A DNA stretch of 64,000 nt, taken from Enteroscipio rubneri (GTDB lineage Bacteria; Actinomycetota; Coriobacteriia; Coriobacteriales; Eggerthellaceae). Numbering within the stretch: position 1 is the first letter of the stretch; every line of letters begins with the position of its first letter. This document shows positions 40,901 to 55,427 of the stretch, piece by piece. The stretch covers positions 1 to 64,000 of the forward strand of contig NZ_PPEK01000011.1 of assembly GCF_002899715.1 (NCBI RefSeq). The letters run 5' to 3'. A program made the position numbers and the translations under genes. The notes under the pieces were generated by a model. The model did not search any database, was not told where the DNA came from, and saw only the letters and a list, made by a program, of their open reading frames with translations.

Positions 40901-43375
40901 CTGGTCCGCCAAATTGAAGGAGCGCATGTCCGCAACGTACTCCTTCTTTGACACGGTATCGTCGCCCTCGATCCACACGTTATAGGCGTAGTCGTTCGGA
41001 ATGAGATTGCTCTCGGGCGACGGGGCGTCGCCTATGAGCAACGGGATGTCGCCCTGTATGATCCCGGATACGTCGTAGGTTCTCGTACCCAAGATCTCAT
41101 CTGTTTCACTGTTGTTGCTGGACTCGTCGTCTTTGACCAGCCCGACGACTGTCACGTTCGCTTCCGATTGCGGAATTTGCAGCACGATGTTCGCAGAACT
41201 GGTATAGAGGGTGCCCATAAGGTTGTCCAGCTCGTAGTAGTCTATCTTGAGGCGGTAGTCGCCTATGGCCTGCTTTGGGGATTCGAGCAAGAAATAAACT
41301 CGGCTCCTGTAGTCAGAATGGAGGAGGTCGGTAACCTCTTTGTAGCTATCGTCCGAGTCCTCCCTGTACTGCAGCTGCACCGAATAGCGGTAGCAATTGT
41401 CGAACGGGTAGAGGGTGGCGAAACCAAAGGAAATCCGCTGATTCACGTCCTTGGCAAGAGCGGAAGCCAAGAAATCTTCGGGCTGGATGGTAATATCGAA
41501 CGGCAGGCTCGTATCGGCCCACTGCGCGTACAGCGTGACGGTCCCGCTCTTTACGAAGTCGTACAGGTTATCGGAGCTTTCGCTGATCCACTCGGCCTTC
41601 GAGTCGTTCCCATCGGGCATGGTCGCCCAGCCCAAAAACGCGCGCGTGTCGTTTTTGTCCTCGCTGTTGACGCACGTAGCCGTGGGCAGCGCGCCTACCG
41701 GTTCGCCTTTCACGAAGGTCTTGGTCACGTCTTTCGGATCCATGGAGCAGGTATTACCGGCAGGTTCGTTCAGGTTGAACTTCACAGTAGCCGAGGAGGG
41801 CACGCAGTAGGCGTAGAAAATGGGGTCGCCGCCGTAGATGCGATCGTGTATATCGTCCGGATTGGCCTTGTATTCCTTCGGCGGCTTGCTCCACGTGCCG
41901 CTCGCGTCAGGCGCTTCGAGCGTCCAATAGGCCAGGCTGTAGCCCTTGGGCGCATCGGCATTCTTGCTGGAAAAAACCGTGTTCCAGTAGGCGTAGCCGT
42001 ACGCGTCCCTCGCGCGCTCGCTGTTCATGGGGTTTATCAACGTAATCTTGATGTCCTTGCCGACGCCGACGCCCTCAAGTACCCTGCCGCCATCGCCTAT
42101 GCACATTTCAGGATCGCTATTGGTATACCCGTGGGTAATGTCGAGAGTAATCATGCTGACGATGCTGCCGTTGCACGCGCTACCGCCGATGGCGTCCGCC
42201 GGCACGCTGCCCTCTAGAGTCTCGCAGCTGGTAATCTTAAATGACGAGGGCACCGCGTACCCGAAAAGGCCGCCGGCATGCCCGGCTTCTGCGGCGTCGG
42301 TTTTGATAGCGCCTGAGTTGTAGCAGGACGAAACAGAACGCGCATAACCGTCGAGGGTGTCGGCGAATCCCACCAAACCGCCGGAGTATCCGATACTGCT
42401 CGAGCTATAGATTTCCCCTTGGTTGTAGTCGTGATGAATGCTAAAAGTGGTCACTATATACGACAGATACCCCACCAAGCCTCCGGCGCATCCCCCGATT
42501 GTTTCTGGCTTGCCTTGATTATTGTTGTCATAGACCGTGGGGAAGCTGCCGCCCATCGACTTGACCTCGCCGTTGTTCGAGCAGTACTCCAAACCACTTG
42601 CCTTAGGCTGGGCCGGGATCCTATCGCTGCACTTCACAAGGCTGCCCACCATGCCGCCAGCGTGCCCCTCCAAGGACAGGATTTCGCCGAAGTTCGAGCA
42701 GCGCTCGATGACGATACCGCCTTTGTCGTTGTTATTGTCGAAATACGAGCCTATGAAGCCGCCGGCACTCGGACCGCCCTGCACGTTCGCCTGGTTCGTG
42801 CAATCCCTTATCTCGATTCGGCGGTCATCGGAAGAGTCGCCCTTCGTGCCGATGCTCCCGAACAGCGTGCCTGCGTTGCCGCTGTAACTCACCGAGCCGA
42901 TGACGTGGAGGTCCTTGATCGTTGTGACGCCCGTGTCGCCAGCCTTGCCGCCGGTCTGGAAGAGGGCGCTGTGGCTGGTAAGCTGGAGCTCGATCAAGTG
43001 CCCGTTGCCGTCGAGCTTGGCCACTTGCAAGTCGGGATGGTTCATTCTGTCGACGACGGCGTCGTCGACGACCCCGCCGTATTCCGCACCATCGGGGCCA
43101 GGGGCGGTGAGGTCATTCATGAGGCGCGCGTACTGCTGGCGCTCTTGGTCCTTGCTCATGCCGTTCAGGCTGTTGCACCACGCAATGAGGTCTTCGGTGC
43201 TGTAGATAAGCGTGGGCTCGTCGGCCGTGCCTTTTCCTTGCAGCTGGGCCGCGTAGGCGGGCGAGGGAGCCGCAAGCGCGGCGAACGCGAGGATCGCGGC
43301 GATCATGCCCGTCGTGAGCAGCGCGGCGAACGCCAGCCGCTTGTCTTCATGTTCACGCCTCAGTACCCGGCCCAT
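31931..43375 (-). CDS. Giant wall-anchored Ig-like/FN3 repeat surface protein
   Basis: This product is about 3,814 aa. A signal peptide (FAALLTTGMIAAILAFAALAAPSPAYA) comes first, then a beta-helix/GLUG-type region (~40-430; e.g. SAGGFIGSYFDN, HAGGMVGSLV). A Listeria-Bacteroides (InlB B-type) repeat ending VTLYAQWA lies near 530-620. From ~1,000 to ~3,650 there are tandem Ig-like (LTYQWQ-type) and fibronectin-III (TYEWRVRAV-type) pairs, at least nine. Next come a C-terminal X2-like domain, a Gly/Pro linker, LAPTGD, a hydrophobic helix and RLRRRR, i.e. a sortase signal. It is probably an adhesin. ATG 43375 replaces a TTG 13 codons earlier. A LytTR two-component system lies divergent, with paired direct repeats at the promoter. 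Confidence 0.9.
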   Translation of the reverse strand: MGRVLRREHEDKRLAFAALLTTGMIAAILAFAALAAPSPAYAAQLQGKGTADEPTLIYSTEDLIAWCNSLNGMSKDQERQQYARLMNDLTAPGPDGAEYGGVVDDAVVDRMNHPDLQVAKLDGNGHLIELQLTSHSALFQTGGKAGDTGVTTIKDLHVIGSVSYSGNAGTLFGSIGTKGDSSDDRRIEIRDCTNQANVQGGPSAGGFIGSYFDNNNDKGGIVIERCSNFGEILSLEGHAGGMVGSLVKCSDRIPAQPKASGLEYCSNNGEVKSMGGSFPTVYDNNNQGKPETIGGCAGGLVGYLSYIVTTFSIHHDYNQGEIYSSSSIGYSGGLVGFADTLDGYARSVSSCYNSGAIKTDAAEAGHAGGLFGYAVPSSFKITSCETLEGSVPADAIGGSACNGSIVSMITLDITHGYTNSDPEMCIGDGGRVLEGVGVGKDIKITLINPMNSERARDAYGYAYWNTVFSSKNADAPKGYSLAYWTLEAPDASGTWSKPPKEYKANPDDIHDRIYGGDPIFYAYCVPSSATVKFNLNEPAGNTCSMDPKDVTKTFVKGEPVGALPTATCVNSEDKNDTRAFLGWATMPDGNDSKAEWISESSDNLYDFVKSGTVTLYAQWADTSLPFDITIQPEDFLASALAKDVNQRISFGFATLYPFDNCYRYSVQLQYREDSDDSYKEVTDLLHSDYRSRVYFLLESPKQAIGDYRLKIDYYELDNLMGTLYTSSANIVLQIPQSEANVTVVGLVKDDESSNNSETDEILGTRTYDVSGIIQGDIPLLIGDAPSPESNLIPNDYAYNVWIEGDDTVSKKEYVADMRSFNLADQHLKEGQTYQLCVARTFYRSYGKDTYEGESEPYRIPFVVPYADSVPVSITVPKMTVDDVVTLDNKPCSFETFSKIPLNKPFNLVVDAKYEQPQPESRPVQVRWQYSDSWDGVNWADLPVDTRVAWSDDRKTARLYTTLNADIAFDEAIFRVRLSSPPSPDSVIGNNSKELSVYLAEPEMAQPRVTDDTHVKLEWTWLDGGGSLMTSEGFAVSIERKEPGGGDWVEEKTDWTTEYSYETTLDPQVEYRACVRAETAGLKSDYSNYRTFKTTGATGLTWNDAYCTAYLPSEQRNDKISVDYDWANYNDGKHAVQYSWYLNENKDSKGGYSHFATTESDSMNFPEDFVTEKQWDPMKAWWVKVEARVWALTDEGELDYVVTGTAKTSSPLPVVHNTTAPQNLKVKDVGSYHATVCWDAPAEGTVREYEVKAGSYKQIVPVEAGKTSYEATINLSPSTYYSASVSTVDSRKRNSTIATTPETVEVHTLPSPEVGTWTVTADKTAADLGDKVTLSASYVANSGKFPTAAELQWYSWCEGDPDWQPEGEAVTLNDASKDYTTTLIHEVTSEDYGRQWKLGVKATSPDASVTGSSNVVTVAIMPPTPTNVACGAPTPTSLPVSWKPVEDAEGYQIKCVKLDTDGNPENATTYSVTADGLKPDAGGKLCYEVLNLQPSTTYQVSVAAFVRGVTGKFSAALDATTLAEPTIETPVFQQVPKTAWVEAGDDATFTAQASVSDGGAIAYAWQRKGAGEQDFTPIAQSDKYAMSENAGVATLTVNKVGADDVAAAFRCVATNSKDNQTANAASTAAYLTVAPVAPTDVQAQATSATTGEVTWKASGAIHRFAVTWRQFDEDGYKGSEYSKVVTIPNDETQGSCQLEGLLPEASYEVAVYAAPEAGFRSEKVSASLYTPAASALDSATVSSDKTLVKPGETVTFKVETNVDGLLPERLEYRWQRNSSGEFWFDVEGEAGTKKELSIVAPEGGSVESYRCIVTSTRTTTGVGTDTKSVTSSVGLLLTSVPVAPPVQLAAEPGTTSVHLTWASGDPRDVTYQVQYAEGSTPNDDAWQTVDNVGSSTSCDVEGLKANTVYSWRVQAVVRDQLWSEWAQADTFITLEEPSALATVLVTPRWGAAVAGSSKGVTYTAVTNIDNALNGETLSYQWQESATGVEWSDVQGATEVTYVADAANAKPRSCQYRCVVTASKDGAPLKTITSESVNFRTTATPPTDLVAESITAATANLSWKGSLVEGLSYRVFWRASGADAWISTSDLTEAKYTLKSLMPATTYEWYVQVMDNGEPSVRSVTSLFVTQSLSPIPQLTRVVVGPLDQTPSAGERATFTAYTNVDDMPDETRAYKWEMRDLDSDEWKTLEGKTTREIKLDPGADGYVRCTVTYTPPTSALVQSLANASVTSTNEARVRVMPGAPSGLTVNAVGKTTADISWTGDASGATFDLVYRAVGSSEWASVPRLNSASTNLADLNPGTVYEWNVRSVAYDASGDPLYSDWVAGPLFTTQPEEIVFSRAWVTPSATSVLAGAEGSVTLTANTDADTANETLTYQWQRFDGTAWKSVDGETAATLQVSAKDLPVGEHPYRCEVTATRGSSTKTFDSNESVVTAMPAAPTDLTVGDDFPYVDPDNQSGQVSAVLSWTWGNGALPEGTRFEVSYRKLAGAGAINDEWLSEGLEIDDAARTCQAVLEARNITYQWRVRVVQNGVTSPWSEIDTFITAQDEPAEVLSSVQVTPSDSLVSNDEVATVTLTASTNVTDDVALTYAWEWCKLTTEDPRKSETVWTSMDDKTSKEITLSGDERNRYVRCTVKQTVGGTTKTASSNPARVRTEPMAPKETSAKAARVGTYDSTSCIGLRWECDDPRAQNDAQKTVIGYEVNYRKIGESEWSEEICNEKSCRLTSLEFDATYEWRVRTILSNNMKGEGGYNPTVDKGGPHSEWVDGPVFTAPKVEVTPTRAAAVIGNGRTLTFTAIPNASIMSHERNKEYQWERYEGTKWVSVPGETNATLSIKANEAATAGASRYRCTVTLEGSEYTRIVTTSNEVTCTLAPAAPTNLTVSDISSDEATLSWTWEKGGLQKADKFEILYRESGAKVWETATAADRACEFVLKDLKPETIYEWRVRAVQNGVESLPSFANLFVTASEHPALKLESVLVDPSDQTVKPEAQVTVTATTNLDGMVDPGELTYAWEKRALDSDPNASDAWTEIAGQTGSSVTLPVKTSGYVRCTVTYTVNGSAVGDPVVSNEVSVRVQPDAVPTDLNVKDIGDTTATFAWGGTLPSGGSFTLLYRPAGEDGWTTVPKLTASPYTVEGLAPGTTYEWRMCSVSADGVASEWVDGPAFATTSPDGVLGSVVVAPERAEAVAGDSALVEDFFATVTGTAEGQSLAYQWQVLLSGGWTNLPGETGERTHLSVATLEAGEHSVRCLVTATAPGGKTKTVESNAVTLVLSPATPSGLDVREVTRDAATLAWTWAGPGAVDSFNVRYREEGASDADWATAPADSVDPVSMTCIIKVLASGTSYEWQVQAVRGGQTSAWVASGFVTLADGPLKVARIWPSDVVLAKDEQARFVVFTNRGNAADVSYEWQRRALDSEDADDSWETIPNATDKILTLAANTTGYIRCVATQTAPSAGAAEGAEVSEVAEAAETPETPEGADVAEGAETPEGPDVADVADAAEAGASNETLGANDGSETNEAGETPAANEAGEASATSEVSEVVETFAASAPVAISNQARVRVTPSVPSGLTAAAGYTNAALSWAPADVDGVTFTLAYRVAGSQDWTEVPGLTAPEYDLGGLAQGSSYEWRVQAVVGKGDDALKTEWAYGDSFTTQTMKTYRVTAGANGTWQPGQAGLAFTINGELDKFVSLAVDGAELKRDKDYTAISGSTIITLSNDYLATLSAGTHTLVATYTDGTAETTFTVAEADKPTPPPPGDGNNTSGTDGDDSGAGGAGAKPLAPTGDPLGNAVGAAGVLGAVCAAFAAIAAVRLRRRR
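32716..33016 (-). repeat. Acidic low-complexity repeat inside the adhesin
   Basis: About 100 residues of Ala/Glu/Thr/Pro/Val repeats (AEAAETPETPEGADV, DVADVADAAEAG, NEAGE) interrupt the last-but-one Ig-like domain between TAPSAG and SNQARVRV. The DNA shows matching short repeats (GCCTCGGCCACGTCGGCC-like), a likely site of length variation. Confidence 0.7.
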
Positions 43376-43414
43376 ACCGTACCCCGTTCTCGCAGGAAAG
43401 CACACTTCAAGCAA

Positions 43415-43480
43415 AGTTTACCGAGGTACAAGGCCGAAAACTGCCTTCTGGCACGAAACGAATCCTCCTGGCATGAAACG
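43415..43480 (-). promoter_or_regulatory. Adhesin promoter region with paired direct repeats
   Basis: CTGGCACGAAACG at 43448-43460 and CTGGCATGAAACG at 43468-43480 repeat with exactly 20-bp spacing. TAAACT (43420-43415, minus strand) is a candidate -10 box. The nearer repeat edge then falls near -40, a usual place for an activator. No good -35 box is present. Confidence 0.6.
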
Positions 43481-43724
43481 CATCCGCCGCCATCCTCGAG
43501 CGGCGGGAGAAGACAGGGACGCTGCCACCCTGAACGAAGGCCACAGGCCGGGGCTGAAGGACCTGCAATAGGAAGCGCCGCGAGGTGCGCCGCCGTTCTC
43601 CCGCCCGCTCAAGATGGCGATGGCTGGCCTGTTGAACATCGGCGGCGGTTTCGCGAAGAGGCGCGGTATACTGGGGGACGAGCGGCGCTTGGGGTCGCGC
43701 AGCACGCTCGGCTCGGCATTCGGG

Positions 43725-43757
43725 CTGGCACGAAACGCGCCGATCTGGCACGAAAAC
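43725..43757 (+). promoter_or_regulatory. Paired direct repeats upstream of the LytTR regulator
   Basis: CTGGCACGAAACG (43725-43737) and CTGGCACGAAAAC (43745-43757) have the same motif, orientation and 20-bp spacing as the pair at 43448-43480. The pair lies 46 bases before the regulator's start codon, which fits autoregulation. Confidence 0.6.
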
Positions 43758-43802
43758 ATCCGTCGCTTTTCAACGATACCGCCAAAATGGAAAGGAGGTT
43801 CC

Positions 43803-44597
43803 ATGACGCGCCGCATAACCGATATGCGCCGTTCAGGCGAACCCCTCCCTGCCGGCATGTATCGAAGAAAGAGACCGATGAGAATCGCCATCGTTGACGA
43901 CTGCGCACCCGATGCCAAAACCCTCGAAGACGCGATCCGCTCCCACCTGGACAAGCGAGGACGCACCTGCGAGATATGCCGCTTCCGCGGCGGCGACGAC
44001 CTGTTCGAGACAGCCGACGCGCTCGCCTTCGACCTCGTGTTCCTGGATGTGTTCCTGGACGGCGCCAACGGCATCGACATCGCCGAACGGCTGCGGCGCG
44101 AGAACTACCCCGGCCTCATCATCTTCACCACCGTGTCCAGCGAACACGCCGTGGACGGGTTCCGTGTGCGCGCGTTCCACTACCTGACCAAGCCGTTCAC
44201 GCCCGACGACATCGCCGCCGCCCTGGACGAGGCAATCGAGCGCCTCGCCGGAGACGAGACCATGCTGCGCATCCACGACGGATCGGCCGTGATCAACGTG
44301 CCGCTGTCGCAGGTGCGCTCCATCACCGCCGACGGGCACTACTTGAACCTCAACACCGCGAACGGGCCGCTGCGCTGGCGCCAGTCGTTCGGCCGGCTCG
44401 CGGACATGGTGGCGCCATATCCGCAGCTGTTCGCCTGCAACCGCGGCATCATGGCGAACCTCGCCCACGTAGACGACCTCACCGACGACGGCTGCTTCCT
44501 TATGGACGACGGCTCAAAGCTGCCCGTGCGCCGCTCGTCGCGCGCCGAGGCACGCAGCCGCTATTTCGACTATCTGTTCACCCACGTGCGGAGGTAG
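43803..44597 (+). CDS. LytTR-family response regulator
   Basis: This ~264-aa regulator has a CheY-like receiver at residues ~26-145: acidic pair in IVDDC, phospho-acceptor Asp in DLVFLDVFLDGANG, Thr/Ser in IIFTTVSS, and Lys in YLTKPFTPDD. A LytTR DNA-binding domain lies at ~165-262 (VINVPLSQVRSITADGHYLNL, FACNRGIMANLAHVDDL). I chose ATG 43803 because AAAGGAGG sits five bases upstream. It adds 25 basic residues before the usual MRIAIVDD start at 43878, which has only a weak site. The kinase gene follows by six bases. Likely targets are the paired repeats beside the adhesin and its own gene. Confidence 0.9.
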   Translation: MTRRITDMRRSGEPLPAGMYRRKRPMRIAIVDDCAPDAKTLEDAIRSHLDKRGRTCEICRFRGGDDLFETADALAFDLVFLDVFLDGANGIDIAERLRRENYPGLIIFTTVSSEHAVDGFRVRAFHYLTKPFTPDDIAAALDEAIERLAGDETMLRIHDGSAVINVPLSQVRSITADGHYLNLNTANGPLRWRQSFGRLADMVAPYPQLFACNRGIMANLAHVDDLTDDGCFLMDDGSKLPVRRSSRAEARSRYFDYLFTHVRR

Positions 44598-44603
44598 GCT
44601 TCC

Positions 44604-46034
44604 ATGGGAGAGGACGTTGCCGGAGGGCTTCTGTGGTACGTCGTGCGCAATGCACCTACGTTCCTGGCGATGTTCTTTCTCATGCTGCTGGCAGTGCGCG
44701 GGCGGCTGCGCTTTTCTCTCAAGGCAACCGTGGGCATGGCGCTGGGCATCGTCGTCGCCGTCAGCCTGGCCTGCGGCATCGGCGTGGCTGCCTTCGCCGG
44801 CGAGGAAGGGGTCTGGGCGACGGTTCCCGTGCTGGCCGTGTCGCTGCTGTCGCTGGCCGCGCTGACGAAGCTGCCGTGGGGCAAGCGCCTGTTCGTGTTC
44901 TTCAGCGCTGCGACCGCCGCCGCCATCGCCATCCTCACCTACGACGTGCTGCTGCGCACGGTGGCGCTGGAATGGAGCTTCGGGGTGCGGCGCGTGCTGG
45001 ACGCCGTCGTGTGCTCCGCGGGCCCGCTCGTGCTGGCGCCGCTGTTCGCGCGAACCATCCGCTGGGGCGTCGAGCAGGTGGACGACCCCGCGCTCTGGCG
45101 GCGCTTGGCCGCCGTGCCCGCGGGGTTCTTTGTGGCGGCGAACGCGCTGTATATGTTCGCCTACGCGGTGGAGTTCCTCTCGAGCGGCGCCAACGCGTTG
45201 TACGCGCTGGCGGTGGGCGTGCTGGCGTTTCTGATGGTGGCGTCGTACCTCATGCTGTTCTCGGCTCTGCGCACCGTCATGGAGAACGCGCGCCTGCGCG
45301 AGGCGGCTCAGCTGGAAGAGCTGCAGCATGAGCGCTACGAGAACCTGCGGCGCACCCTGCGCGAAACCGCCAAGGCGCGCCATGACTTCCGCCATCAGCT
45401 GCTGGTCATTCGGTCGTTCGCCGAAAAGGACGACGTGCGAGGCCTGCGCGCATACCTCGACGAGGAAGGGGCTGGCCAGGCGCAACGCGAGTCGGGCGCC
45501 TACGCGCTCAACTTTGCTTTAGACTCCGTGGCCGCGCATTTCGCCGAGCGGGCTCGAGCCTGCGGTGCCGATGTCTCGCTCGCCTTCGCGCTGCCCGAAC
45601 GCCTGCCGCTGCCCGAAGCCGATTTCTGCATGGCGATGGCGAACCTACTGGAGAACGCCGTGGAGGCCTGCGAGCGCGCGGCGACGGAGGGCGCGCAGGG
45701 TTCGGGGAGCGCGCGGGCGGGGACGGACGGCCGATCGGCGTTGCCGGACGGGGCGCGCACGCTCTTCATGGACGCCGAAGTGCGGGTCGAGGGCAGCGCC
45801 GTGCTGGTTTCCGTGCGCAACAACTGCTCGTCCACCGATGCCCGCGCGTTGGCCGCCGCGGCGCCAAACGGCGTGCTGTCGAGCGGCGCACGCTCGGCCA
45901 AGCGGGAGGGCGACGGCATCGGGCTGGCCTCGGTAGCCACGATGGCGAAGCGCTATCGGGGAGAAGTACGGGTTGAAACCGACGAGCACGCGGCGACGAT
46001 CCGCGTGCTGCTGCGCGCAGGCGGGGCGCGCTAG
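44604..46034 (+). CDS. GHKL-type sensor histidine kinase (AgrC/HPK10-like)
   Basis: The 476-aa protein has six or seven membrane helices in residues ~10-230. A coiled linker (AQLEELQHERYENLRRTLRETAKARHDFRHQLL) holds the phospho-acceptor His in RHDFRHQL. The ATPase domain has an N-box NLLENAVEACERA and a G-box GDGIGLASVATMAKRY. An Ala/Gly/Ser-rich insertion separates these boxes. It has no classical periplasmic sensor domain, so the signal is probably membrane-embedded or peptide-like. GGAGG precedes ATG 44604. It should phosphorylate the adjacent LytTR regulator, with which it forms one operon. Confidence 0.9.
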   Translation: MGEDVAGGLLWYVVRNAPTFLAMFFLMLLAVRGRLRFSLKATVGMALGIVVAVSLACGIGVAAFAGEEGVWATVPVLAVSLLSLAALTKLPWGKRLFVFFSAATAAAIAILTYDVLLRTVALEWSFGVRRVLDAVVCSAGPLVLAPLFARTIRWGVEQVDDPALWRRLAAVPAGFFVAANALYMFAYAVEFLSSGANALYALAVGVLAFLMVASYLMLFSALRTVMENARLREAAQLEELQHERYENLRRTLRETAKARHDFRHQLLVIRSFAEKDDVRGLRAYLDEEGAGQAQRESGAYALNFALDSVAAHFAERARACGADVSLAFALPERLPLPEADFCMAMANLLENAVEACERAATEGAQGSGSARAGTDGRSALPDGARTLFMDAEVRVEGSAVLVSVRNNCSSTDARALAAAAPNGVLSSGARSAKREGDGIGLASVATMAKRYRGEVRVETDEHAATIRVLLRAGGAR

Positions 46035-46444: not shown

Positions 46445-46527
46445 GATGAACACGCATATCTATGCGCGTTCGCCAAGCGGTCGCAATGCGAGGCCCGCGT
46501 TCGCGGCCGAGAAAGGAGGCGGTACGC

Positions 46528-48153
46528 ATGACCGCTCTCGACGCTCTCCGTTCCCGCAGAAACCTCGATGACAGCGTGATGCTCGATGCTTCGGACCTCG
46601 CGTTCTACCGTGACGGCGTGCTCGCCCTGTACGGCGGAGAGGACGAAGCGCGCGAGCGCTTTCCCCAGCTGTACCGGGCTTTGCAGGAAGCCTGCGAGAA
46701 CCTGCCTGCCCCCAACCGGCTCGGCGAGCCCACCGACTTCGTCGACGGCGCGCTCATCGATGCCGTGACGTGGAATCGCGAGGACAACAGGCTCACGGTG
46801 CGCGCCGTCACCTCGTTGGTAGAGCCAGCCTACTTCATCGACGAGCACATGGAGGTGCGCACGGGCGCCGGTGAAATCGTGGGCGGTTTCGCGCAGTCCA
46901 CGACGGACACGTGCCACAGCGAGCTGGTGTTCGAGACGGATTTCGATCCGGCCGAGTTCTCATCCACCGTGCTGGAGATCGATTACGTCTCCAACTGGGT
47001 GACCGCCGGCAATCGCCGCCTGAACACCATGCTCACCAGCAAAGACGCGCATGAAGAAGCGTATCTTTCCACGCGGGTCAAAGCCGTGCACGTGCTGAGC
47101 CCTGTCAAGAGGGTGCAGGGCAAGGCCGCGCCGATCAACATCTGCTACAACCGTTTTCCGCTGGGCGAAGAGGACGTCGACTACCTGTACCAGGGCAAGG
47201 TGTTCGATCCCTACAACGGCCAGCAGCGCCTGTTCGCTCCCGTGTCCGCCTGGGTCGAGTTCGAGCTGGACGAGCAAGGGCGCCAGGATTCGTTCAAACG
47301 CATCGACATCACCACGTTCAAGTTGAAGATGGACTGCCAGAACGGCATCTCCCGCTACGAAATCAGAGGGCGTGAGACGAATGTGGAGCACCATTTCGTC
47401 GCGCAGCCTGACGCGGCCAAGACCTATGCCAGTGGCTTCAGCTTCGATCTCGATCCCGACTGGAAAGCGAACGTGCCCTCGCGGCGCTGGCCTGCACGCG
47501 ACCGCGTGGACATGCTGATGGAAGTGAAGTTCGAGCACGAGAGCGGCGACCCTGGGACGATCGAGCTCACGACGATGGCCGATCGGTCGCAGGCGAACGT
47601 CGGCAAGGTGGACTGGATGAATCTGCTGTGGGGCTGCCTGCGCAAGGACACGCGCGTGCTCATGGCCGACGGCTCGCAGCGTCCGGTGGAAAGCGTGCGT
47701 GTGGGCGATCTCGTGCAACGCGACGCTCAGGGAGGCGTTGCCGCAGTGAGCGACGTGGTGAGGGGCTTCGAGGAGAACCTCGTGGCGTTCAGCACGGTGG
47801 ACGGGCGCCAGCTCGTGTGCTCGCGCAACCATCCCCTGGTCACAAGCGAGGGAACGCTGCCGGCCGAGCAGGTGCGCGGCAACTGCCGCCTGTACGGCCC
47901 GGGCGGCGAGGCGCTCGTGCTGAACGGCATTTGGGACGTGCCGGGCGACGAGGTGTACAACCTGTGCCTCGACGAGGCGGCGGACGGCTCCGGGCGCGAA
48001 GGCGGCACGTTCTTCGCCGAGAACATCCTCGTGGGCGACAACAACATGCAGGCGTTCCTCGCCTGGGGGCAGAGCAAGGAGGCGCTTGCCGACAACCCCT
48101 TCCTCGCGGAGTGCGAGGAGAAGAACCGCCGCTGGAACGGGGGGCGCTCATGA
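46528..48153 (+). CDS. Hint (intein/hedgehog-like) domain protein
   Basis: The 541-aa protein has no signal peptide. Residues ~1-369 are of unknown family and look globular. Residues ~370-506 form a Hint domain: Cys370 in WGCLRKDTRVLMADGSQRPV, VRVGDLVQRD, CSRNHPLVTSEG with the block-B histidine, and a C-terminal FFAENILVGDNN. A 35-residue tail follows. Hint domains can self-cleave or splice. Here the usual penultimate His before the final Asn is Asp, so full splicing is doubtful. AAAGGAGG precedes ATG 46528. An earlier in-frame ATG lacks such a site. The stop overlaps the LamG gene as ATGA. Confidence 0.85.
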   Translation: MTALDALRSRRNLDDSVMLDASDLAFYRDGVLALYGGEDEARERFPQLYRALQEACENLPAPNRLGEPTDFVDGALIDAVTWNREDNRLTVRAVTSLVEPAYFIDEHMEVRTGAGEIVGGFAQSTTDTCHSELVFETDFDPAEFSSTVLEIDYVSNWVTAGNRRLNTMLTSKDAHEEAYLSTRVKAVHVLSPVKRVQGKAAPINICYNRFPLGEEDVDYLYQGKVFDPYNGQQRLFAPVSAWVEFELDEQGRQDSFKRIDITTFKLKMDCQNGISRYEIRGRETNVEHHFVAQPDAAKTYASGFSFDLDPDWKANVPSRRWPARDRVDMLMEVKFEHESGDPGTIELTTMADRSQANVGKVDWMNLLWGCLRKDTRVLMADGSQRPVESVRVGDLVQRDAQGGVAAVSDVVRGFEENLVAFSTVDGRQLVCSRNHPLVTSEGTLPAEQVRGNCRLYGPGGEALVLNGIWDVPGDEVYNLCLDEAADGSGREGGTFFAENILVGDNNMQAFLAWGQSKEALADNPFLAECEEKNRRWNGGRS

Positions 48154-51100
48154 GCACGCAACGCCGGAGCTTCTTCGCCCTGAAGTGCGCCCCTCCCGAC
48201 TTGGCTTTCTGCGCCGCAGTGCCCGATCGTTCGCTTTCGGGCGGCGACGCGTTCTCGCTCGGCGCCACGGTGTTCGTGCCGCACAATGGCAGCGACAAGA
48301 CCGTCGTCGAGCAGCCGGGCTCGTTCCGGTTCGGCTACGACGGGGGCGCCGTGCTGTTCGAGTCGAAGAACCTGGGGCGGCATCGCAGCGATCCGGCCGG
48401 TGTGCACCTGCTCGAGAACGAGTGGAACCGCATCGACGCCGTGTACGATGGGGAGGTGTTGCGCCTGTACATCCAGGGTATCCCCGTCTACGAGGCGAAC
48501 GCGACGGGCGAGCGCTTCGTGGATGGGGAGACGCGTTGGCAGATGGGAGACCTGGACGGTTACGTGCAGGAAGTCACGCTGGCGGCGCGCTCCTTCACCG
48601 ACGACGAGGTGCGGTTCAACCAGATAGAGCACGTGGTGCCCGACGGCGAACTGGAGCTTTGCGCCGACTTCGACGCGTTCGACCCGCGAGACGCAGGGCG
48701 TCACGCGTTGCCGCTGCAGCTGGTGGGCCACTGCGACGTGGTCAACCTCGTGCCGGCGCTGCGAACGGGAACGGCCGGCTCGGTGCTGGCGCCGCGCACG
48801 ACGGCGAACCCGGGCGCGTTTTCAACGGGCGCTTTCACGGTTCTGGCGAAGGTGTTTCCCACCGTCTCGCCCGAGATGGGCGACGGCTACGTGTTCGCGA
48901 ACGGCGCGCTTGGCGATGCGCAGGGGTTCGCCTTGGGCGTGACGGAGCAGCAGACGAAGCCGTTTTGCCTCATCGGCGGAGAGCGATTCGCGTTCGATGC
49001 CACATTGCCCGTCAACGAGTGGAGCGACCTCGCCGTCAGCGTATCGGGCGCGCAGGCCGCGTTCTTCGTCGACGGCGTTCCGACGGGCACCGCGACGTTG
49101 GCGGCGCCGTTTGCGCGCACGGAGCCTGCCGACGTGATGATTGGCAACGCGCCCGACGCTGCCGGCGTTGCGGTCATGGGTTTCCCCGGGTTCATCGATG
49201 CGGTGACGGTGTTCGATCGGGCGCTCGACGCCGATCGGCTGGCCGGCTATGCCGACGTGGCGCCGTATCGCTTCGACGATGGCGTGGCGGCGTCGTGGCT
49301 GTTTTCCGACGAAGCGCCGCGCGAAGTCGTGCTCGATGGCCAGATGCTCTACGCGGGCGGCGCGGCCGTGGCGCTGCGCGAGAACACGGTGCTCGATCCG
49401 AATCCGCCCACGCTCGCATTCGCCCTGCCCGACGTAGCCACCGGCATGACCGACGTGGAGGAATGGGAGAGCCGCGCGGCCGCCACCGTGCTGCTGGAAA
49501 CCGTGAAGGCGCTCACCGGCCAAGAGGCGGTGTCGGGGTTCAGCGGCGGCGGCCAGGGCAAGCTGAACGGCTCGATGGCGAAGGCGCTCTACGTGACGCT
49601 TGCCGCCGATGCGCGCATGAAATCCATCGAGGACGAGGGCTCCGTGACTCGCGACGTGCTGATAGGGATATTCGCCTCAGTGTCGGGCGTGGCGGCCCTG
49701 TGGCCCGTTTTCGAGGCTTTCTACCTATCGGGCGCGCGCTGGCAGAACCCGTACCGGATCGCGCGTTTTCTCAGATACGTGCGCATATTGTCGCCCGTCG
49801 CAAAAAGCAAGGTATCGAAAGCGATCGCCGCAGCGGCCGCGATCGCCACTATTACCCTTGCCGCCCGGCCTTCTCCCGACCCCCGGGAGAGCAAGACGAA
49901 AGGGGCCACGATCGCGCTGAAGTCGCTCGCCTTCTACTCGGACGCCTCCAAGGATTGCGGCGCGGTGTGCATCCGCCCGGACTTCGATGCCTCGCCCGTG
50001 CTACCCGAGTGGACGGAGGGCTGCACCGCATCGCAGTCGGCGTACTGGCGCGTCGGCGCGGATGCCCGACCGGTGCTGCGCCTGACGCTTGCCGTCTCGG
50101 CGCTCGATGCTCCGACGACGGTGCAGGTGAAGGCGACGGCCCAGGGCGACGGGCTGTTGGGGTCGCTCGATGCGCAGAACGTGACCCTTGCAGCCGTGGG
50201 CGACGTGACGGTCGATTTCCCCCTGGCGCACCATGCCCTGGGAGCCGCCGACCTCGGGTCCCACAACGTGCTTTTCCAATGGCGCGCGGGCGACAAGCTG
50301 CTGGGCTCCACCAAGCACGAGGTGCACGTGCTGGCCGCGCGCCCGTTGCCGCGGTGGTCGAACGAGCCGGGGAAAGGCGAATTGCCGACCCTTCCCGCCA
50401 TCCGGATGGCCGAGGCGGTGCAGGCGCAGGAAAGCACTGAGGAGGAGGCAAGCCGGCGGTTCTGCGGCCAGTTCGTCGCATGGGTACGCGCAGAAGCTGC
50501 TGCAGGGAAGCTGGTCGGGCGGCCTTGGACCGACGGCCCGGCGTTCGTGCACTGGGACAAGCAGCATCGCAACCTGCTGTTCGACATTGCTTCCTTCTTC
50601 GAGGCATACGCCGCGCCCCCGGTTGCCGTGGGAGCGCTCGATTTGGCGGGCCTGACGCTGGCGCTCGCACGCATGGAAGGGCTCGCCGAGGTGCGCCTGG
50701 CCGAGTTGAGCGGCTTGGCCGGCACGGGGGGCCTGATGGTTCGCGCGGCATACCGGCTTGGGGAGACGGCGGTCGAACGTTCGCTGACCGCAGCAACCTA
50801 CCCGGTGACCTGCGTGAAAGACGGCTCGCATGATCGCATCTACGACGCGTACCTCGAGCCGGTCGATGCTTCCGGAGCGCGGGTTTCCGCCACCGGCCTG
50901 CCGTTCTCCCTCGGGTCGGAGAAGACCGACGCGGTGGCGGGAGTGAGCGCTTCCACGTACCGCACGTTGTTGTGCGCGCCGGGCACGACGGGTTGCGTGG
51001 CGCTGAGAACCGCCGTCCTCGGGTTCGGGACGCTACCGCTCCAGGGCATCAGCCCGGGTGAGCCGGTGGTCGTGCAGACGAGGGGTGGGCGCCCGTCGTT

Positions 51101-51914
51101 CGACAGGTGCGTCATCGAAGCGCTCACGCTCCCGCCGACCGAAGCCCGTTGCCACTCTCTCAGTTTCGTCGATATCGAGCGTTTGGTGGTCAACGCGATA
51201 AACCTCTACGTGGGCGGAAGCCCCGACCCCGAGGTTCCAGCCGACCCCGCCCAGCTGAACAGCGTGATGTTCGACCTATGGCGCGCGGTCACGCACAACG
51301 AGGAGGAAGGCAGGAGCGGTCTGCCCGTTCCCCAGTCGGAGATGCAGGTAGCTTCTCTCGCGCGTCTCACCAGAGTCTTCGAGGGGGAGTTTCCCGAGAA
51401 AAAGGAGGGCTGGTCGCAATTCGGAAACGACATGGTGAGCCTTTTGAACAGCGAGGTGGAGAACCTTCGCCGGGGCATGTCCGACTGGAACTCGTCGATA
51501 GGGAGCAGGTTCGATCCCCAGGACTGGTGCCATCTTGTCGAGAGCGACGAGTCGCTGTATTGCGACTGCTCGATGGGCGATCCTGAATTGTACGAGCCAT
51601 GCGACACGATACTGGACTGTCCCTGCATGGGGCCGGGCTTCTACCTGGCCAATCCCGACGATTGCCAATGCCTCACGCGATTGAGGTGCGGCGAGCCCGC
51701 CGTGGACGTCTCGAGCATCGTGACGTGCGCGCAGGGCGTATTCGTTGATTTGGAGTACGGTCCGAACCTTGCTTCGGATACGCGCAGGCGGTTCCTCTAT
51801 TCTTCGACCAACAGCTGGGGGCTCAACGACATCGCGCACGTGTACCCGGCGGTCAATGACCCCGTCTATTACTTGAACGTTCTTGCAGACAGCCCCGATT
51901 GGGTGGAGCTATAG
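48150..51914 (+). CDS. Large protein with two LamG/concanavalin-like domains
   Basis: The 1,254-aa protein appears to carry two laminin-G/ConA-like modules. The first spans ~30-170 (ENEWNRIDAVYDGEVLRLYIQG, WQMGDLDGYVQEVTL). The second spans ~225-395 (LPVNEWSDLAVSVSGAQAAFFVDG, GFPGFIDAVTVFDRAL). Hydrophobic stretches near 510-540 and 560-575 could be membrane segments. Residues ~1,130-1,190 are Cys-rich (CHLVESDESLYCDCSMGD, CDTILDCPCMG, CQCLTRLRC). No signal peptide or sorting motif is visible. It overlaps the Hint gene by four bases, so the two products very likely work together. I do not recognise the overall family. Its stop shares the palindrome CTATAG with the stop of the opposing gene. 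Confidence 0.82.
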   Translation: MSTQRRSFFALKCAPPDLAFCAAVPDRSLSGGDAFSLGATVFVPHNGSDKTVVEQPGSFRFGYDGGAVLFESKNLGRHRSDPAGVHLLENEWNRIDAVYDGEVLRLYIQGIPVYEANATGERFVDGETRWQMGDLDGYVQEVTLAARSFTDDEVRFNQIEHVVPDGELELCADFDAFDPRDAGRHALPLQLVGHCDVVNLVPALRTGTAGSVLAPRTTANPGAFSTGAFTVLAKVFPTVSPEMGDGYVFANGALGDAQGFALGVTEQQTKPFCLIGGERFAFDATLPVNEWSDLAVSVSGAQAAFFVDGVPTGTATLAAPFARTEPADVMIGNAPDAAGVAVMGFPGFIDAVTVFDRALDADRLAGYADVAPYRFDDGVAASWLFSDEAPREVVLDGQMLYAGGAAVALRENTVLDPNPPTLAFALPDVATGMTDVEEWESRAAATVLLETVKALTGQEAVSGFSGGGQGKLNGSMAKALYVTLAADARMKSIEDEGSVTRDVLIGIFASVSGVAALWPVFEAFYLSGARWQNPYRIARFLRYVRILSPVAKSKVSKAIAAAAAIATITLAARPSPDPRESKTKGATIALKSLAFYSDASKDCGAVCIRPDFDASPVLPEWTEGCTASQSAYWRVGADARPVLRLTLAVSALDAPTTVQVKATAQGDGLLGSLDAQNVTLAAVGDVTVDFPLAHHALGAADLGSHNVLFQWRAGDKLLGSTKHEVHVLAARPLPRWSNEPGKGELPTLPAIRMAEAVQAQESTEEEASRRFCGQFVAWVRAEAAAGKLVGRPWTDGPAFVHWDKQHRNLLFDIASFFEAYAAPPVAVGALDLAGLTLALARMEGLAEVRLAELSGLAGTGGLMVRAAYRLGETAVERSLTAATYPVTCVKDGSHDRIYDAYLEPVDASGARVSATGLPFSLGSEKTDAVAGVSASTYRTLLCAPGTTGCVALRTAVLGFGTLPLQGISPGEPVVVQTRGGRPSFDRCVIEALTLPPTEARCHSLSFVDIERLVVNAINLYVGGSPDPEVPADPAQLNSVMFDLWRAVTHNEEEGRSGLPVPQSEMQVASLARLTRVFEGEFPEKKEGWSQFGNDMVSLLNSEVENLRRGMSDWNSSIGSRFDPQDWCHLVESDESLYCDCSMGDPELYEPCDTILDCPCMGPGFYLANPDDCQCLTRLRCGEPAVDVSSIVTCAQGVFVDLEYGPNLASDTRRRFLYSSTNSWGLNDIAHVYPAVNDPVYYLNVLADSPDWVEL

Positions 51915-54900
51915 GGTTTCGGCTGCTGTGCGACGCCGGCGCCGCACAGCACGTGTCGCGATGGCGGCGCACGTCAAGGCCGACAGCGCCAGGGCGCTTG
52001 TCGCCGCCGCCGTCGGCGCTGCGGTGTCGCCCGTGCGTGCGAGGGGCTTCGGCGTGGCGCCCCCTTCTGTGGCGTTGGGCGTCGGTTGGGGTTGCGGGAT
52101 GGGCTCGGGCTCGACTGCCGCCCCCGTTTTCACCAGAATGCGGCCGGTGCCGTTTTCGTCGGCGTAGATGGAATCGGCCCGTATCACGCCGCTCAGATCG
52201 TCCTTGATGAAGGAGATGAGCGCCTCGTAATCCAAGCCCTGCTCGGAGACGAGCACCTTCGCATCCTTGAACATGGAGAACCCGTCACCGCTGTCTTGCA
52301 GCAGGTAGGTGATGGACGAGACGGTGTAGGTTTTGCCCAGATCGATGGGTTCGCCGCCCACGCGCACGTTTTGCACGCGCCGCGCGCCCTCGATGCCCAC
52401 GAACACACCCTTTTCGTCCAGCTTCACGGGCGAGGGGATATCGGAACGTATCTCGTAGGTGAGCCCCGAGGTTTGCAGCAGCCCGCCGTTGGGCTCGGGG
52501 TAGAGGCGCGCGCCCATTTCCAGCGCGTCGACGATGGTCTGGCCGGTGGCTTCCACCTTGCAGAGCGTGTTGCCGAACGGCAGCACCGCGATGGCGTCGC
52601 CGTACGTGATGTCGCCCACGGCCACGTCGGAGCGGATGCCGCCTCCGTTCATGAAGCCGATGTCGGCGCCGAGCGATGCGCGCACGGCGTCGGCTGCAAG
52701 GTCGCCCAGGTTCGTCTCGCGCATGCGCACGGCCCAGCTATGCTGCGTGTCGCTCTCCACGGCCACCAGCTTGACCTCGGTGCGGGCGACCACCTTGTCC
52801 AGCGTTTTGCTCAGCCTGTCCTCGATGTCCTTGATGAAGGCGGCGGTGTCGGGGTCCTGCGCCACGGGAGGCTTCACTAGACGCGTTTCGATCTTCCCCG
52901 TCGTGGGATGGATGATCACCTCGCCGTAGGTTTGCAGCTGTGTGCCGGTTTGCGCCAGAAGCACGTCCCTGCCCGCCTTGTTGGCGACGCGCTGTTCGTA
53001 CTGCTCGTGGGAGTGGCCGTCGATGAACACGTCGATGCCCGTGGTGTTCGCGATGACGGTGTCCGAGCGCCAACGGGCGGCGACGCCCGACTGGCCCAAA
53101 TGTCCGAGGGCCACCACGTAGTCGGCTCCGTTCGCGTGGGCCTCGTCGACGGTTTGCTGGACGCGGTCGTAGAGCATCTGCCCCGTCTCGTCTTCGCAGA
53201 AGCCGTAGACGTCGGTCCCGCTCGCGTCCTTGAAGTGCGCCGGGTTCGACTTGGTCAGCGACTCGGGCGTGGAGATGCCCACGTAGGCCACGCGCACGTT
53301 GCCGTACGTTTCGATCGTGTAAGGCGAGAACTCGGTTGCGCCCGTTTCCAGGTTGTCGAAGTTGCACGACAGGTAGGTGGCGTTCGAACGGTCGACGAGC
53401 CTGCGCAGCTGATCCATCCCGTAGTCGAACTCGTGGTTGCCGGGTATGGCCAGGTCGTAGCCGACCTGGTTCATGATATCCACCAGGTCGGCACCCTGCG
53501 AGAGCGTTCCCAGGGGCTTGCCCTGCACGGCGTCGCCCGCGTCCACGAGGGTGACGTTGTCGGCGCCGTAGGCCGCTTCCGCGTCCTTGAGCGCCTGGGA
53601 AACCCCGGCGTAGCCGATGCTCGTAGCCGTGCCGTCCTCGTCGAAGGTCTGGTCGACGCCGCAGTGCACGTCGTTGGTGTGCAGGATGGCGATGGGCGTG
53701 TCGGGCCCGGCGGGCGTTTCGGTGGTGTACGCCTTCAGCAGGGCGTTTCCCGCCGTGTAGCCGGCCCCGTCTTCGAACAGGTTCTCGCGGGCCATGTCGT
53801 GCCAGTCGGACGTCCCCTCGGTGTAGTAGGTTTGGCCGGCCGCGCAGTCGATGGCGGCATACTCTTGGCTCGCATCGTCGACTTCGGCGAGCATGAGGTA
53901 GTTCCCGTTGGGCTCCTGTGCGGAAGCGACCACCGAGAAGGTGTCGCCCGCGATGACGGGAAACGCATCGCTGCCCAGGTCGATGGTGGTGTAGCCTGCG
54001 TTGGCCCCGGTAAGCGTCGTATGCCACTTCAGGGTGCCGCTTTGCGGGTTCAGCGTCCCGCCGTCGGTCAGGCCGGTGGGGTTGCGATAGACGGTGATGT
54101 CCACTTGGGAGCAGGCCGTTGGTAGAAACACGCTGACTGCCTGCACGGTCTCGCTGCCGCGCGCCTCGAATACGTTGGCGAACTGGATGCGCTGGGTGTT
54201 GCTGAACCCCGTCTCGCCGACGCCCACCCCGTCGTACTGGTAGATGCCGTCGTAGGCGTGGTCGGTGCCGTCGGCGTCGTAGGTTGCCTGTTCTGCTTGG
54301 TAAGACGTGGGATTCGAGAAGCTGGTGTCGTAGTAGGACAGGTAGAAGCAGCCGTCCTGGTGGCCGCTCGTCCCGGAGCCCCAGCTGTTCTTGACGATCC
54401 AAGCGCCGTCGCCTTCCGGTTGGGTGGAAAACTTCTCCTTCGGGAAGCTGTCGTCCCACCCGATGATGCTCACCTCGTGATTCGCCAGCATCTCGGCGTT
54501 GTCGGCCGTCTTGCTGTAGAAGTAGGCGCTCGTTGCGGGGTTCCACGTGCCCCGCCCCGTCATATTATTCGTGATCGCGTTGTCGGCGTAGAACGACACG
54601 TCCACGACGCCGTTTTCCATGAGGCACGTCTTGATGGCGTCGACGGCGCTGGGATCGCGACGGTGCTCCAAGGTGGGCGACCCGCCTTCGTGCTCCTGCC
54701 AGGTGTACACGTTGGGCTCGGGAAGAAACATGACGTTCTGCACGTGCACGTCGGACTGGTTGCGCAGGGCGGCGTCCGGTGCGCCCATGCTGGCATCGTT
54801 GATGTACGGGGCCTTCTGCTCGTCCACGGCGCCGTACCAGCGCATGAGCGTGGCGGCGGACAGGTTTCGAGCCCCGCCCGCGTCGTAGTCGGATCGGCCG

Positions 54901-55427
54901 GTGGTGTTGAGGAACGTGTCGCCGCCCGCCCACCGGCTGTCGTCGGCGCTGTCGTCCGCGCCGTTGTACGCGAACCATGCCAGATGGCGCTCGGCCAGGT
55001 CGGGGCTGCTGGGAGCGCCTGTGGCATGGTCCGTGACCAGCAGGTTCGACTCGAGCGACGACAGTGCGCCAAACGACCAGCAGTCGCCGAAGGGGTACTG
55101 GTCTTTGACGCTGGTCGAGAGGCTCGCCCCACCCGCTCCCGCCGTGCGCAGGTCGTAGGAGTCGGGGAGGGCCGCAAGCGCGTTGGCCCCCGATGCGGGG
55201 TTCAGCAGGGAGGGGTCGTTGAGGCTGAACACAGGCCCGCGCTCGGTTTCCACCATGCGGCCGAGCGGCTGGAGCGTGCCGACACTGGCGCTCGAGCCGG
55301 TGCCGGCGGGATCGGCGGCGCTGTCGGGCTCGGCGAAGGCGGGAACGGGGAGCAGTGTCGCCGCGAACGCGAGGGCGAGCGCGGCGCGTCCAAGAGCGCC
55401 GAACGGGTTGCAGGAGGGCTTCTTCAT
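51909..55427 (-). CDS. Wall-anchored papain-like protease / 5'-nucleotidase fusion
   Basis: The 1,172-aa surface protein starts with a signal peptide (to ~residue 32). A C1-family protease domain follows (~90-370): oxyanion Gln110, Cys116 in GDCWSFGA, His317 in NHEVSIIGWDD and Asn347 in VKNSWG. A lectin-like domain of the kind seen with C1 proteases spans ~400-565. A UshA-type metallophosphatase is next (HTNDVH 583, GDAVQGKP 631, GNHEFDYG 663, GHSHEQ 804). It ends in a 5'-nucleotidase C-terminal domain (NGGGIRSD 927), LARTGD at 1129, a hydrophobic helix and RRRRR. All catalytic residues appear intact. It could release peptides and nucleosides at the cell surface. Confidence 0.9.
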   Translation of the reverse strand: MKKPSCNPFGALGRAALALAFAATLLPVPAFAEPDSAADPAGTGSSASVGTLQPLGRMVETERGPVFSLNDPSLLNPASGANALAALPDSYDLRTAGAGGASLSTSVKDQYPFGDCWSFGALSSLESNLLVTDHATGAPSSPDLAERHLAWFAYNGADDSADDSRWAGGDTFLNTTGRSDYDAGGARNLSAATLMRWYGAVDEQKAPYINDASMGAPDAALRNQSDVHVQNVMFLPEPNVYTWQEHEGGSPTLEHRRDPSAVDAIKTCLMENGVVDVSFYADNAITNNMTGRGTWNPATSAYFYSKTADNAEMLANHEVSIIGWDDSFPKEKFSTQPEGDGAWIVKNSWGSGTSGHQDGCFYLSYYDTSFSNPTSYQAEQATYDADGTDHAYDGIYQYDGVGVGETGFSNTQRIQFANVFEARGSETVQAVSVFLPTACSQVDITVYRNPTGLTDGGTLNPQSGTLKWHTTLTGANAGYTTIDLGSDAFPVIAGDTFSVVASAQEPNGNYLMLAEVDDASQEYAAIDCAAGQTYYTEGTSDWHDMARENLFEDGAGYTAGNALLKAYTTETPAGPDTPIAILHTNDVHCGVDQTFDEDGTATSIGYAGVSQALKDAEAAYGADNVTLVDAGDAVQGKPLGTLSQGADLVDIMNQVGYDLAIPGNHEFDYGMDQLRRLVDRSNATYLSCNFDNLETGATEFSPYTIETYGNVRVAYVGISTPESLTKSNPAHFKDASGTDVYGFCEDETGQMLYDRVQQTVDEAHANGADYVVALGHLGQSGVAARWRSDTVIANTTGIDVFIDGHSHEQYEQRVANKAGRDVLLAQTGTQLQTYGEVIIHPTTGKIETRLVKPPVAQDPDTAAFIKDIEDRLSKTLDKVVARTEVKLVAVESDTQHSWAVRMRETNLGDLAADAVRASLGADIGFMNGGGIRSDVAVGDITYGDAIAVLPFGNTLCKVEATGQTIVDALEMGARLYPEPNGGLLQTSGLTYEIRSDIPSPVKLDEKGVFVGIEGARRVQNVRVGGEPIDLGKTYTVSSITYLLQDSGDGFSMFKDAKVLVSEQGLDYEALISFIKDDLSGVIRADSIYADENGTGRILVKTGAAVEPEPIPQPQPTPNATEGGATPKPLARTGDTAAPTAAATSALALSALTCAAIATRAVRRRRRTAAETL

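What the first reader, a model, noticed from the sequence alone, without database searches (positions are those of the whole stretch)
46528..51914. Two-gene system: Hint-domain protein coupled to a LamG/Cys-rich protein
A 541-aa protein with an unknown 370-residue N-domain and a C-terminal intein-like Hint domain overlaps by ATGA a 1,254-aa protein with two LamG-like modules, possible membrane segments and a Cys-rich end. Neither has a signal peptide or sorting motif. The pair could be a self-processing or polymorphic-effector-like system, or a protein-ligation machine. I recognise no described example.
Basis: partly seen in the sequence, partly recalled or inferred. Interest (0 to 1): 0.7.

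Follow-up and report, generated by a model that had tools for sequence, protein, structure and literature searches.

The report
Self-cleaving protein with LamG partner
A gut bacterium carries a two-gene unit, found in at least two bacterial phyla, in which a protein with an intein-like self-cleaving domain that looks able to cut only at its front end is made together with a large carbohydrate-binding-like protein; what the cut piece does is unknown but testable.

Summary
The two genes are real and translationally coupled (ATGA, 48150-48153). Gene 1 (P1, 541 aa) is a ~369-residue N-domain plus a genuine HINT domain (residues 370-504; predicted fold Z 19.8 to the Ssp DnaB intein). In 37 aligned relatives Cys370 is kept in 36, block-B His in 36 and Pro in 37, but the His-Asn end of inteins is replaced by Gly503-Asp504 (37/37 G, 36 D) followed by an invariant Gln508. 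Gene 2 (P2, 1254 aa) has two LamG modules, a hydrophobic stretch, an Ig-like and possibly transglutaminase-like region, and a modular C-terminal domain; its Cys-rich end is not conserved. Of six genomes with full-length P2, five have it directly behind P1, in Eggerthellaceae and Lachnospiraceae. In other phyla P1 sits beside other large uncharacterised proteins or RHS proteins. A bacterial Hint subgroup that P1 resembles was noted in 2008 (PMC2362128) without function; I found no report of the pair. Best reading: a hedgehog-like N-cleaving precursor with a dedicated LamG partner. No cleavage has been shown.

The parts
46512..46519 (+). Shine-Dalgarno-like AAAGGAGG ahead of P1
   Evidence: read in the sequence
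46528..48153 (+). P1: N-domain + HINT protein, 541 aa
46528..47634 (+). P1 N-domain (residues 1-369): helical head about 21-57, beta-rich from about 80; fold not assigned
   Evidence: AlphaFold2 model, mostly low confidence; homologous across phyla
47635..48039 (+). HINT domain (residues 370-504), Cys370 to Asp504
47635..47637 (+). Cys370 codon, predicted N-to-S acyl-shift nucleophile
   Evidence: C in 36 of 37 members; the other has a truncated start
47830..47835 (+). block-B His435-Pro436
   Evidence: H in 36 of 37, P in 37 of 37
48034..48051 (+). G503-D504-x-x-x-Q508 signature replacing the intein His-Asn end
   Evidence: G 37/37, D 36/37, Q 37/37; D504 at the last intein residue
48150..48153 (+). 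ATGA stop/start overlap of P1 and P2
48150..51914 (+). P2: LamG partner protein, 1254 aa
48207..49238 (+). two LamG-like modules (about residues 20-190 and 219-363)
   Evidence: Pfam Laminin_G_3, two stretches; borders of the first are approximate
49644..49712 (+). hydrophobic segment (residues 499-521)
   Evidence: hydropathy
49890..50384 (+). Ig-like beta region (about residues 581-745)
   Evidence: low-confidence model with one better-scored beta block; alignment
50385..50999 (+). possible transglutaminase-like region (about residues 746-950), catalytic Cys and His not kept here
   Evidence: motif in relatives, read by eye; profile test inconclusive
51000..51914 (+). modular C-terminal domain with RCHS and NLRxG..WNSSI motifs; the Cys cluster within it is specific to the window

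Best explanation
P1 is an autoprocessing precursor of hedgehog type. Its HINT domain turns the Gly369-Cys370 bond into a thioester and releases the N-domain, by hydrolysis or by transfer to an external nucleophile; it cannot splice because the C-terminal His-Asn and the +1 nucleophile are missing. P2 is its co-translated dedicated partner in this lineage: LamG modules for binding, a hydrophobic stretch, and a modular C-terminal domain; it is a plausible acceptor, carrier or surface anchor of the released N-domain. Shown by computation: the HINT fold, the conserved N-side active site, the lost C-side residues, the conserved gene pair. Inferred: that cleavage happens, what the nucleophile is, the role of P2, and where the proteins act.
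For: HINT fold with Cys370 at intein position 1 and Asp504 at the last intein position. Cys370 36/37, His435 36/37, Gly503 37/37, Gln508 37/37 over members from Actinomycetota, Bacillota, Pseudomonadota and Bacteroidota. A Gly precedes the Cys in most members. P2 directly behind P1 in 5 of the 6 genomes with full-length P2, overlapping by 4, 4, 8 and 4 nt in four and separated by 10 nt in one. The flanks differ: the 19-kb G041 stretch matches none of the other 9 window genes tested, and a same-genus genome keeps the surface protein/two-component block but lacks the pair there, so the two genes travel as a unit. In 348 Lachnospiraceae genomes the only 3 full-length P2 genes are the ones next to P1.
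Against: No biochemical evidence. P1 exists with other partners in other phyla, so P2 is not universally needed. G069 has P2 without an adjacent P1 (its neighbour is an unrelated 342-aa gene) and a solo HINT elsewhere. The block-F Asp of inteins (position recalled) is Asn478 in 35 of 37, which could weaken thioester chemistry. Neither protein has an export signal.
Confidence: 0.6

Rival explanations
1. A polymorphic-toxin-like unit: P2 (and the analogous large proteins in other lineages) delivers a C-terminal effector domain, and P1 processes or helps assemble it.
For: The P2 C-terminal domain is modular: present in 4 of 6 P2 proteins, absent in G792 and G069, and found in a stand-alone 282-aa ORF in G628. 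P1 relatives lie beside RHS proteins in L068 and L142, and in L061 beside gp19-like tube and sheath genes of a contractile injection system.
Against: HINT in polymorphic toxins lies just ahead of the toxin (PMC3482391, passages seen); here only a 33-residue tail follows it. No shared small gene follows P2 in the five pairs (ORF lists, by eye). No leader. The C-terminal domain matches no Pfam family up to E 10.
Confidence: 0.2
2. A surface adhesin or matrix unit: the HINT only trims or tethers P1, and P2 binds glycans on host or bacterial surfaces.
For: LamG modules; large beta-rich, fn3 or LRR neighbours in other loci; surface proteins flank the pair in the window; exported relatives of P1 keep a Cys pair.
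Against: No signal peptide or sorting motif in either window protein, unlike the flanking gene at 51909-55427, which ends in a PLARTGD-like motif.
Confidence: 0.3
3. The HINT domain is catalytically dead and purely structural.
For: The terminal His-Asn is gone and the block-F Asp is Asn in 35 of 37.
Against: Cys370 and His435 would hardly stay in 36 of 37 diverse members if only the fold mattered.
Confidence: 0.12
4. A splicing intein or an A-type bacterial intein-like domain.
For: Closest solved structures are inteins and BIL domains.
Against: No His-Asn end, no +1 Cys/Ser/Thr, and only a 7-54-residue C-terminal tail in the family.
Confidence: 0.03

Closest known systems
Bacterial Hint-like subgroup of Buerglin 2008 (plu1731, MXAN_6253, Serratia, Reinekea, Yersinia; PMC2362128)
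   Same: Hint at the C-terminus, weakly conserved N-terminal region, some members with signal peptides, two upstream Cys, overlapping genera (Photorhabdus, Serratia).
   Different: The window lacks the second Cys (V217) and a signal peptide, and has the P2 partner.
B-type bacterial intein-like (BIL) domains
   Same: Described as keeping the intein motifs except the C-terminal one and as cleaving at the N-terminus (PMC7765530, passage).
   Different: The GD-xxx-Q end and the conserved N-domain; no B-type sequence was compared here.
Hedgehog / Hog autoprocessing domain
   Same: HINT fold (1at0 Z 18.0), a Cys nucleophile at the N-side and no C-terminal splicing.
   Different: No domain of sterol-recognition size follows (33-residue tail); unrelated N-domain.
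Polymorphic-toxin pretoxin HINT (PF07591)
   Same: HINT fold; one relative (L142) scores above its cut-off.
   Different: P1 has no toxin behind the HINT and no His-Asn end.

Membership tests
HINT superfamily | HINT fold | tested here: met
   residues 368-506, Z 19.8, rmsd 1.5, 131 aligned to 1mi8
HINT superfamily | Cys/Ser at position 1 and block-B His | tested here: met
   Cys370, S432-R-N-H435; 36 of 37 each
Intein | terminal His-Asn and +1 Cys/Ser/Thr | tested here: not met
   Gly503-Asp504, Asn505; same kind of change in the whole family
A-type BIL | conserved C-terminal His-Asn | tested here: not met
   definition from PMC7765530
B-type BIL | intein motifs without the canonical C-terminal motif | tested here: inconclusive
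   consistent, but no B-type sequence was aligned and block F is altered
B-type BIL | N-terminal self-cleavage | not testable with these tools
   needs biochemistry
Bacterial Hint subgroup of 2008 | C-terminal Hint with conserved N-terminal region, some with signal peptides | tested here: met
   feature from PMC2362128 section 12
Bacterial Hint subgroup of 2008 | two upstream Cys conserved in all | tested here: not met
   the window has C206 but V217; both Cys in 14 of 14 members with a hydrophobic N-terminus and 6 of 21 others, 2 truncated members left out
Polymorphic toxin | HINT directly ahead of a C-terminal toxin domain | tested here: not met
   33-residue tail in P1; no HINT in P2
Polymorphic toxin | immunity gene behind the toxin | tested here: inconclusive
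   ORF lists inspected by eye only
LamG (PF13385) | profile match over the curated cut-off | tested here: met
   93.6 bits against 27.6, two stretches
Transglutaminase-like (PF01841) | Cys-His-Asp core recognisable by profile | tested here: inconclusive
   no Pfam hit; hhalign score 25.9 against a maximum of 15.3 in 50 shuffles but probability 9%; the 3-row profile of proteins with an apparent triad scored 13.0, below its shuffle maximum of 21.7

The most novel reading that the evidence does not exclude
P1/P2 is a prokaryotic hedgehog-like ligation pair: the HINT domain makes a C-terminal thioester on the N-domain and passes it to a specific acceptor (P2, a surface amine, or a small molecule), and the invariant Gly-Asp-xxx-Gln end is the device that blocks C-terminal cleavage and positions the acceptor. 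Different lineages have paired the same ligating precursor with different giant partner proteins.
Probability: 0.2. Interest if true: 0.8.

Novelty: new variant of a known kind. Interest (0 to 1): 0.5.

Why it matters
As far as I know (recall, not a call), physiological substrates of bacterial HINT domains that only cleave at the N-side are largely unknown. A compact two-gene unit with an invariant, altered C-terminal motif, a conserved N-domain and a lineage-specific dedicated partner makes the question of what a bacterial Hedgehog-type domain attaches its cargo to directly testable with one purified protein and one point mutant.

Tried and rejected
Splicing intein and A-type BIL: rejected on missing C-side residues. 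Phage origin: P1 gave one weak Hint-only phage hit and a Photorhabdus P1 gave none; of three viral-contig scans two found nothing and one found a single contig, L147, which I did not study further. Plasmid searches with P2 of L138 and with the stand-alone C-domain: nothing. The P2 C-domain profile in 296 phylum genomes: only the window (G041 was not among the rows listed). Structure of P2 residues 581-1254: poor (mean pLDDT 37.7, 3 sequences), not used for fold search. N-domain fold: not assigned; the structural matches listed lie in or around the HINT part, so nothing is claimed about a new fold. Transglutaminase-like core: inconclusive (a first attempt, used wrongly oriented templates and is discarded). 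PADLOC: only E 0.036 or weaker for all proteins tried.

Rows left out: of 58 loci I used the 19 with a VGD...Q end and an N-domain and did not study the other 39. Of the 11 Lachnospiraceae genomes with a P1-profile match I studied 9 and left G634 and G825. In one search, 36 of the 39 matching genomes match only from profile position 403 on (the Hint part) and were not followed.

Literature: searches in an open-access library only. PMC2362128: section 12 and passages; PMC3482391: section 19 and passages; PMC7765530 and PMC5874633: passages; others: listings only. The BIL paper of 2004 is not held.

Full report
What is there. P1 (46528-48153, 541 aa) and P2 (48150-51914, 1254 aa) are two forward genes overlapping by ATGA. 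They have homologs of 73% and 67% identity, also adjacent, in G041, which the named-genome scan shows as Gordonibacter sp. Marseille-P2775. Among 149 related genomes (own included) P1 with its N-domain occurs in 2 and a solo Hint in 1; the same-genus genome G001 has neither P1 nor P2. G001 does keep the giant fn3-type surface protein, response regulator and kinase that lie upstream of the pair in the window, without P1 or P2 behind the kinase; in the 19-kb stretch around the G041 pair only P1 and P2 match out of 11 window genes tested. The two genes therefore behave as one sporadic module.

P1. Sequence profiles see only the front of a Hint domain. A model from 24 sequences is good for residues 370-504 and weak for the N-domain. 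The HINT part superposes on inteins, BIL domains and Hedgehog (Z up to 19.8), with Cys370 at position 1 and Asp504 at the final residue. I collected 37 members: 24 from the window and 19 genome loci, 4 from plasmids and 9 from Lachnospiraceae and G069, including two solo Hints. Conservation in these: Cys370 36 (one truncated), Ser/Thr432 37, His435 36, Pro436 37, Asn478 35, Gly503 37, Asp504 36 (one Glu), Gln508 37. Position 505 is N 27, Y 3, L 3, F 4. So the N-side of the intein active site is conserved and the C-side is replaced by a new invariant motif. Only N-terminal thioester chemistry is plausible.

The family and its history. The N-domain is homologous across phyla: a Bacteroidota member finds Tistrella over residues 18-516 at E 5e-30. 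Members with a strongly hydrophobic N-terminus (14 of 14) keep two Cys in the N-domain; 6 of 21 others do. The window belongs to the branch without a signal peptide, with C206 but V217. [quoted passage not shown] This is very probably the family P1 comes from, but I could not align those sequences, and the window lacks one of the two Cys. Searches for plu1731 and MXAN_6253 found only that paper.

P2. Pfam finds two LamG stretches. Six full-length relatives align: window, G041, L057, L138 (G604), L140 (G792), L017 (G069). They share LamG-LamG, a hydrophobic region and an Ig-like region; a following region in L138, L140 and L017 carries what looks by eye like a Cys-His-Asp transglutaminase-type triad, with the Cys replaced by Ala or Ser in the window, G041 and L057. 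A profile test of that idea was inconclusive. A final domain with RCHS and NLRxG..WNSSI motifs is present in four, absent in G792 and G069, and occurs alone in G628. The Cys cluster in this domain is specific to the window.

The pair. P2 lies directly behind P1 in the window, L056, L057, L138 and L140 and not in G069. In 348 Lachnospiraceae genomes, 29 match the P2 profile, but only 3 over its full length, and these 3 are next to P1. Elsewhere P1 is followed by other large proteins: two further families (c8, c11) in Tistrella, Magnetospirillum, Embleya and two Lachnospiraceae; a c8-like and an RHS protein in L068; unknown proteins without Pfam match in Serratia. An RHS protein lies upstream of the P1-like gene in L142. 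In Photorhabdus P1 stands near sucABCD-type genes, or in L061 beside tail-tube and sheath genes (L062 has similar ORF sizes).

How it most likely works. Step 1 (inferred from conserved residues): Cys370 attacks Gly369, forming a thioester with help of His435. Step 2 (inferred): since there is no terminal Asn, no +1 nucleophile and a Gly-Asp-xxx-Gln end, the thioester is resolved by water or an outside nucleophile, freeing or attaching the N-domain. Step 3 (speculative): in this lineage the co-translated P2 is the acceptor, carrier or anchor. I give about 0.75 to N-terminal processing, 0.8 to a functional link between P1 and P2, and 0.2 to true ligation.

Verdict. A real, conserved two-gene unit. 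The HINT class itself has been noted before; the altered C-terminal signature across 37 members and the P1-P2 pairing I did not find in print in the searches listed under Tried and rejected. It is a new variant of a known kind, worth one simple biochemical test.

Noticed in passing
window 31931-46034: A 3827-aa fn3-like surface protein (minus strand) with a divergent LytTR-type response regulator and kinase (types read by eye); the same block exists in the same-genus genome G001.
   Followed up: partly
window 51909-55427: A 1172-aa protein with a signal peptide, a papain-like part, a 5'-nucleotidase-like part and a PLARTGD sorting-like end (domains read by eye), convergent with P2.
   Followed up: no
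G000 contig C16 (L205): An open frame of 15,887 aa fills nearly the whole 48-kb contig; the part read looks like a GLUG-like repeat surface protein.
   Followed up: partly
L061 2531-10465, L062: In two Photorhabdus genomes a P1 relative stands divergently next to a contractile-injection-type cluster; tube and sheath were confirmed by Pfam in L061 only, L062 by ORF sizes.
   Followed up: partly
L169:9033-9878: A stand-alone ORF in G628 carries the P2 C-terminal domain motifs (RCHTVS, NLRYG..NSSI) with no Pfam match.
   Followed up: partly
L142, L143: P1 relatives fused to, or preceded by, a Gly-rich collagen-like segment.
   Followed up: no
L065, L066, L067, L069: Two P1 copies within a few kilobases in several Photorhabdus genomes.
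   Followed up: no
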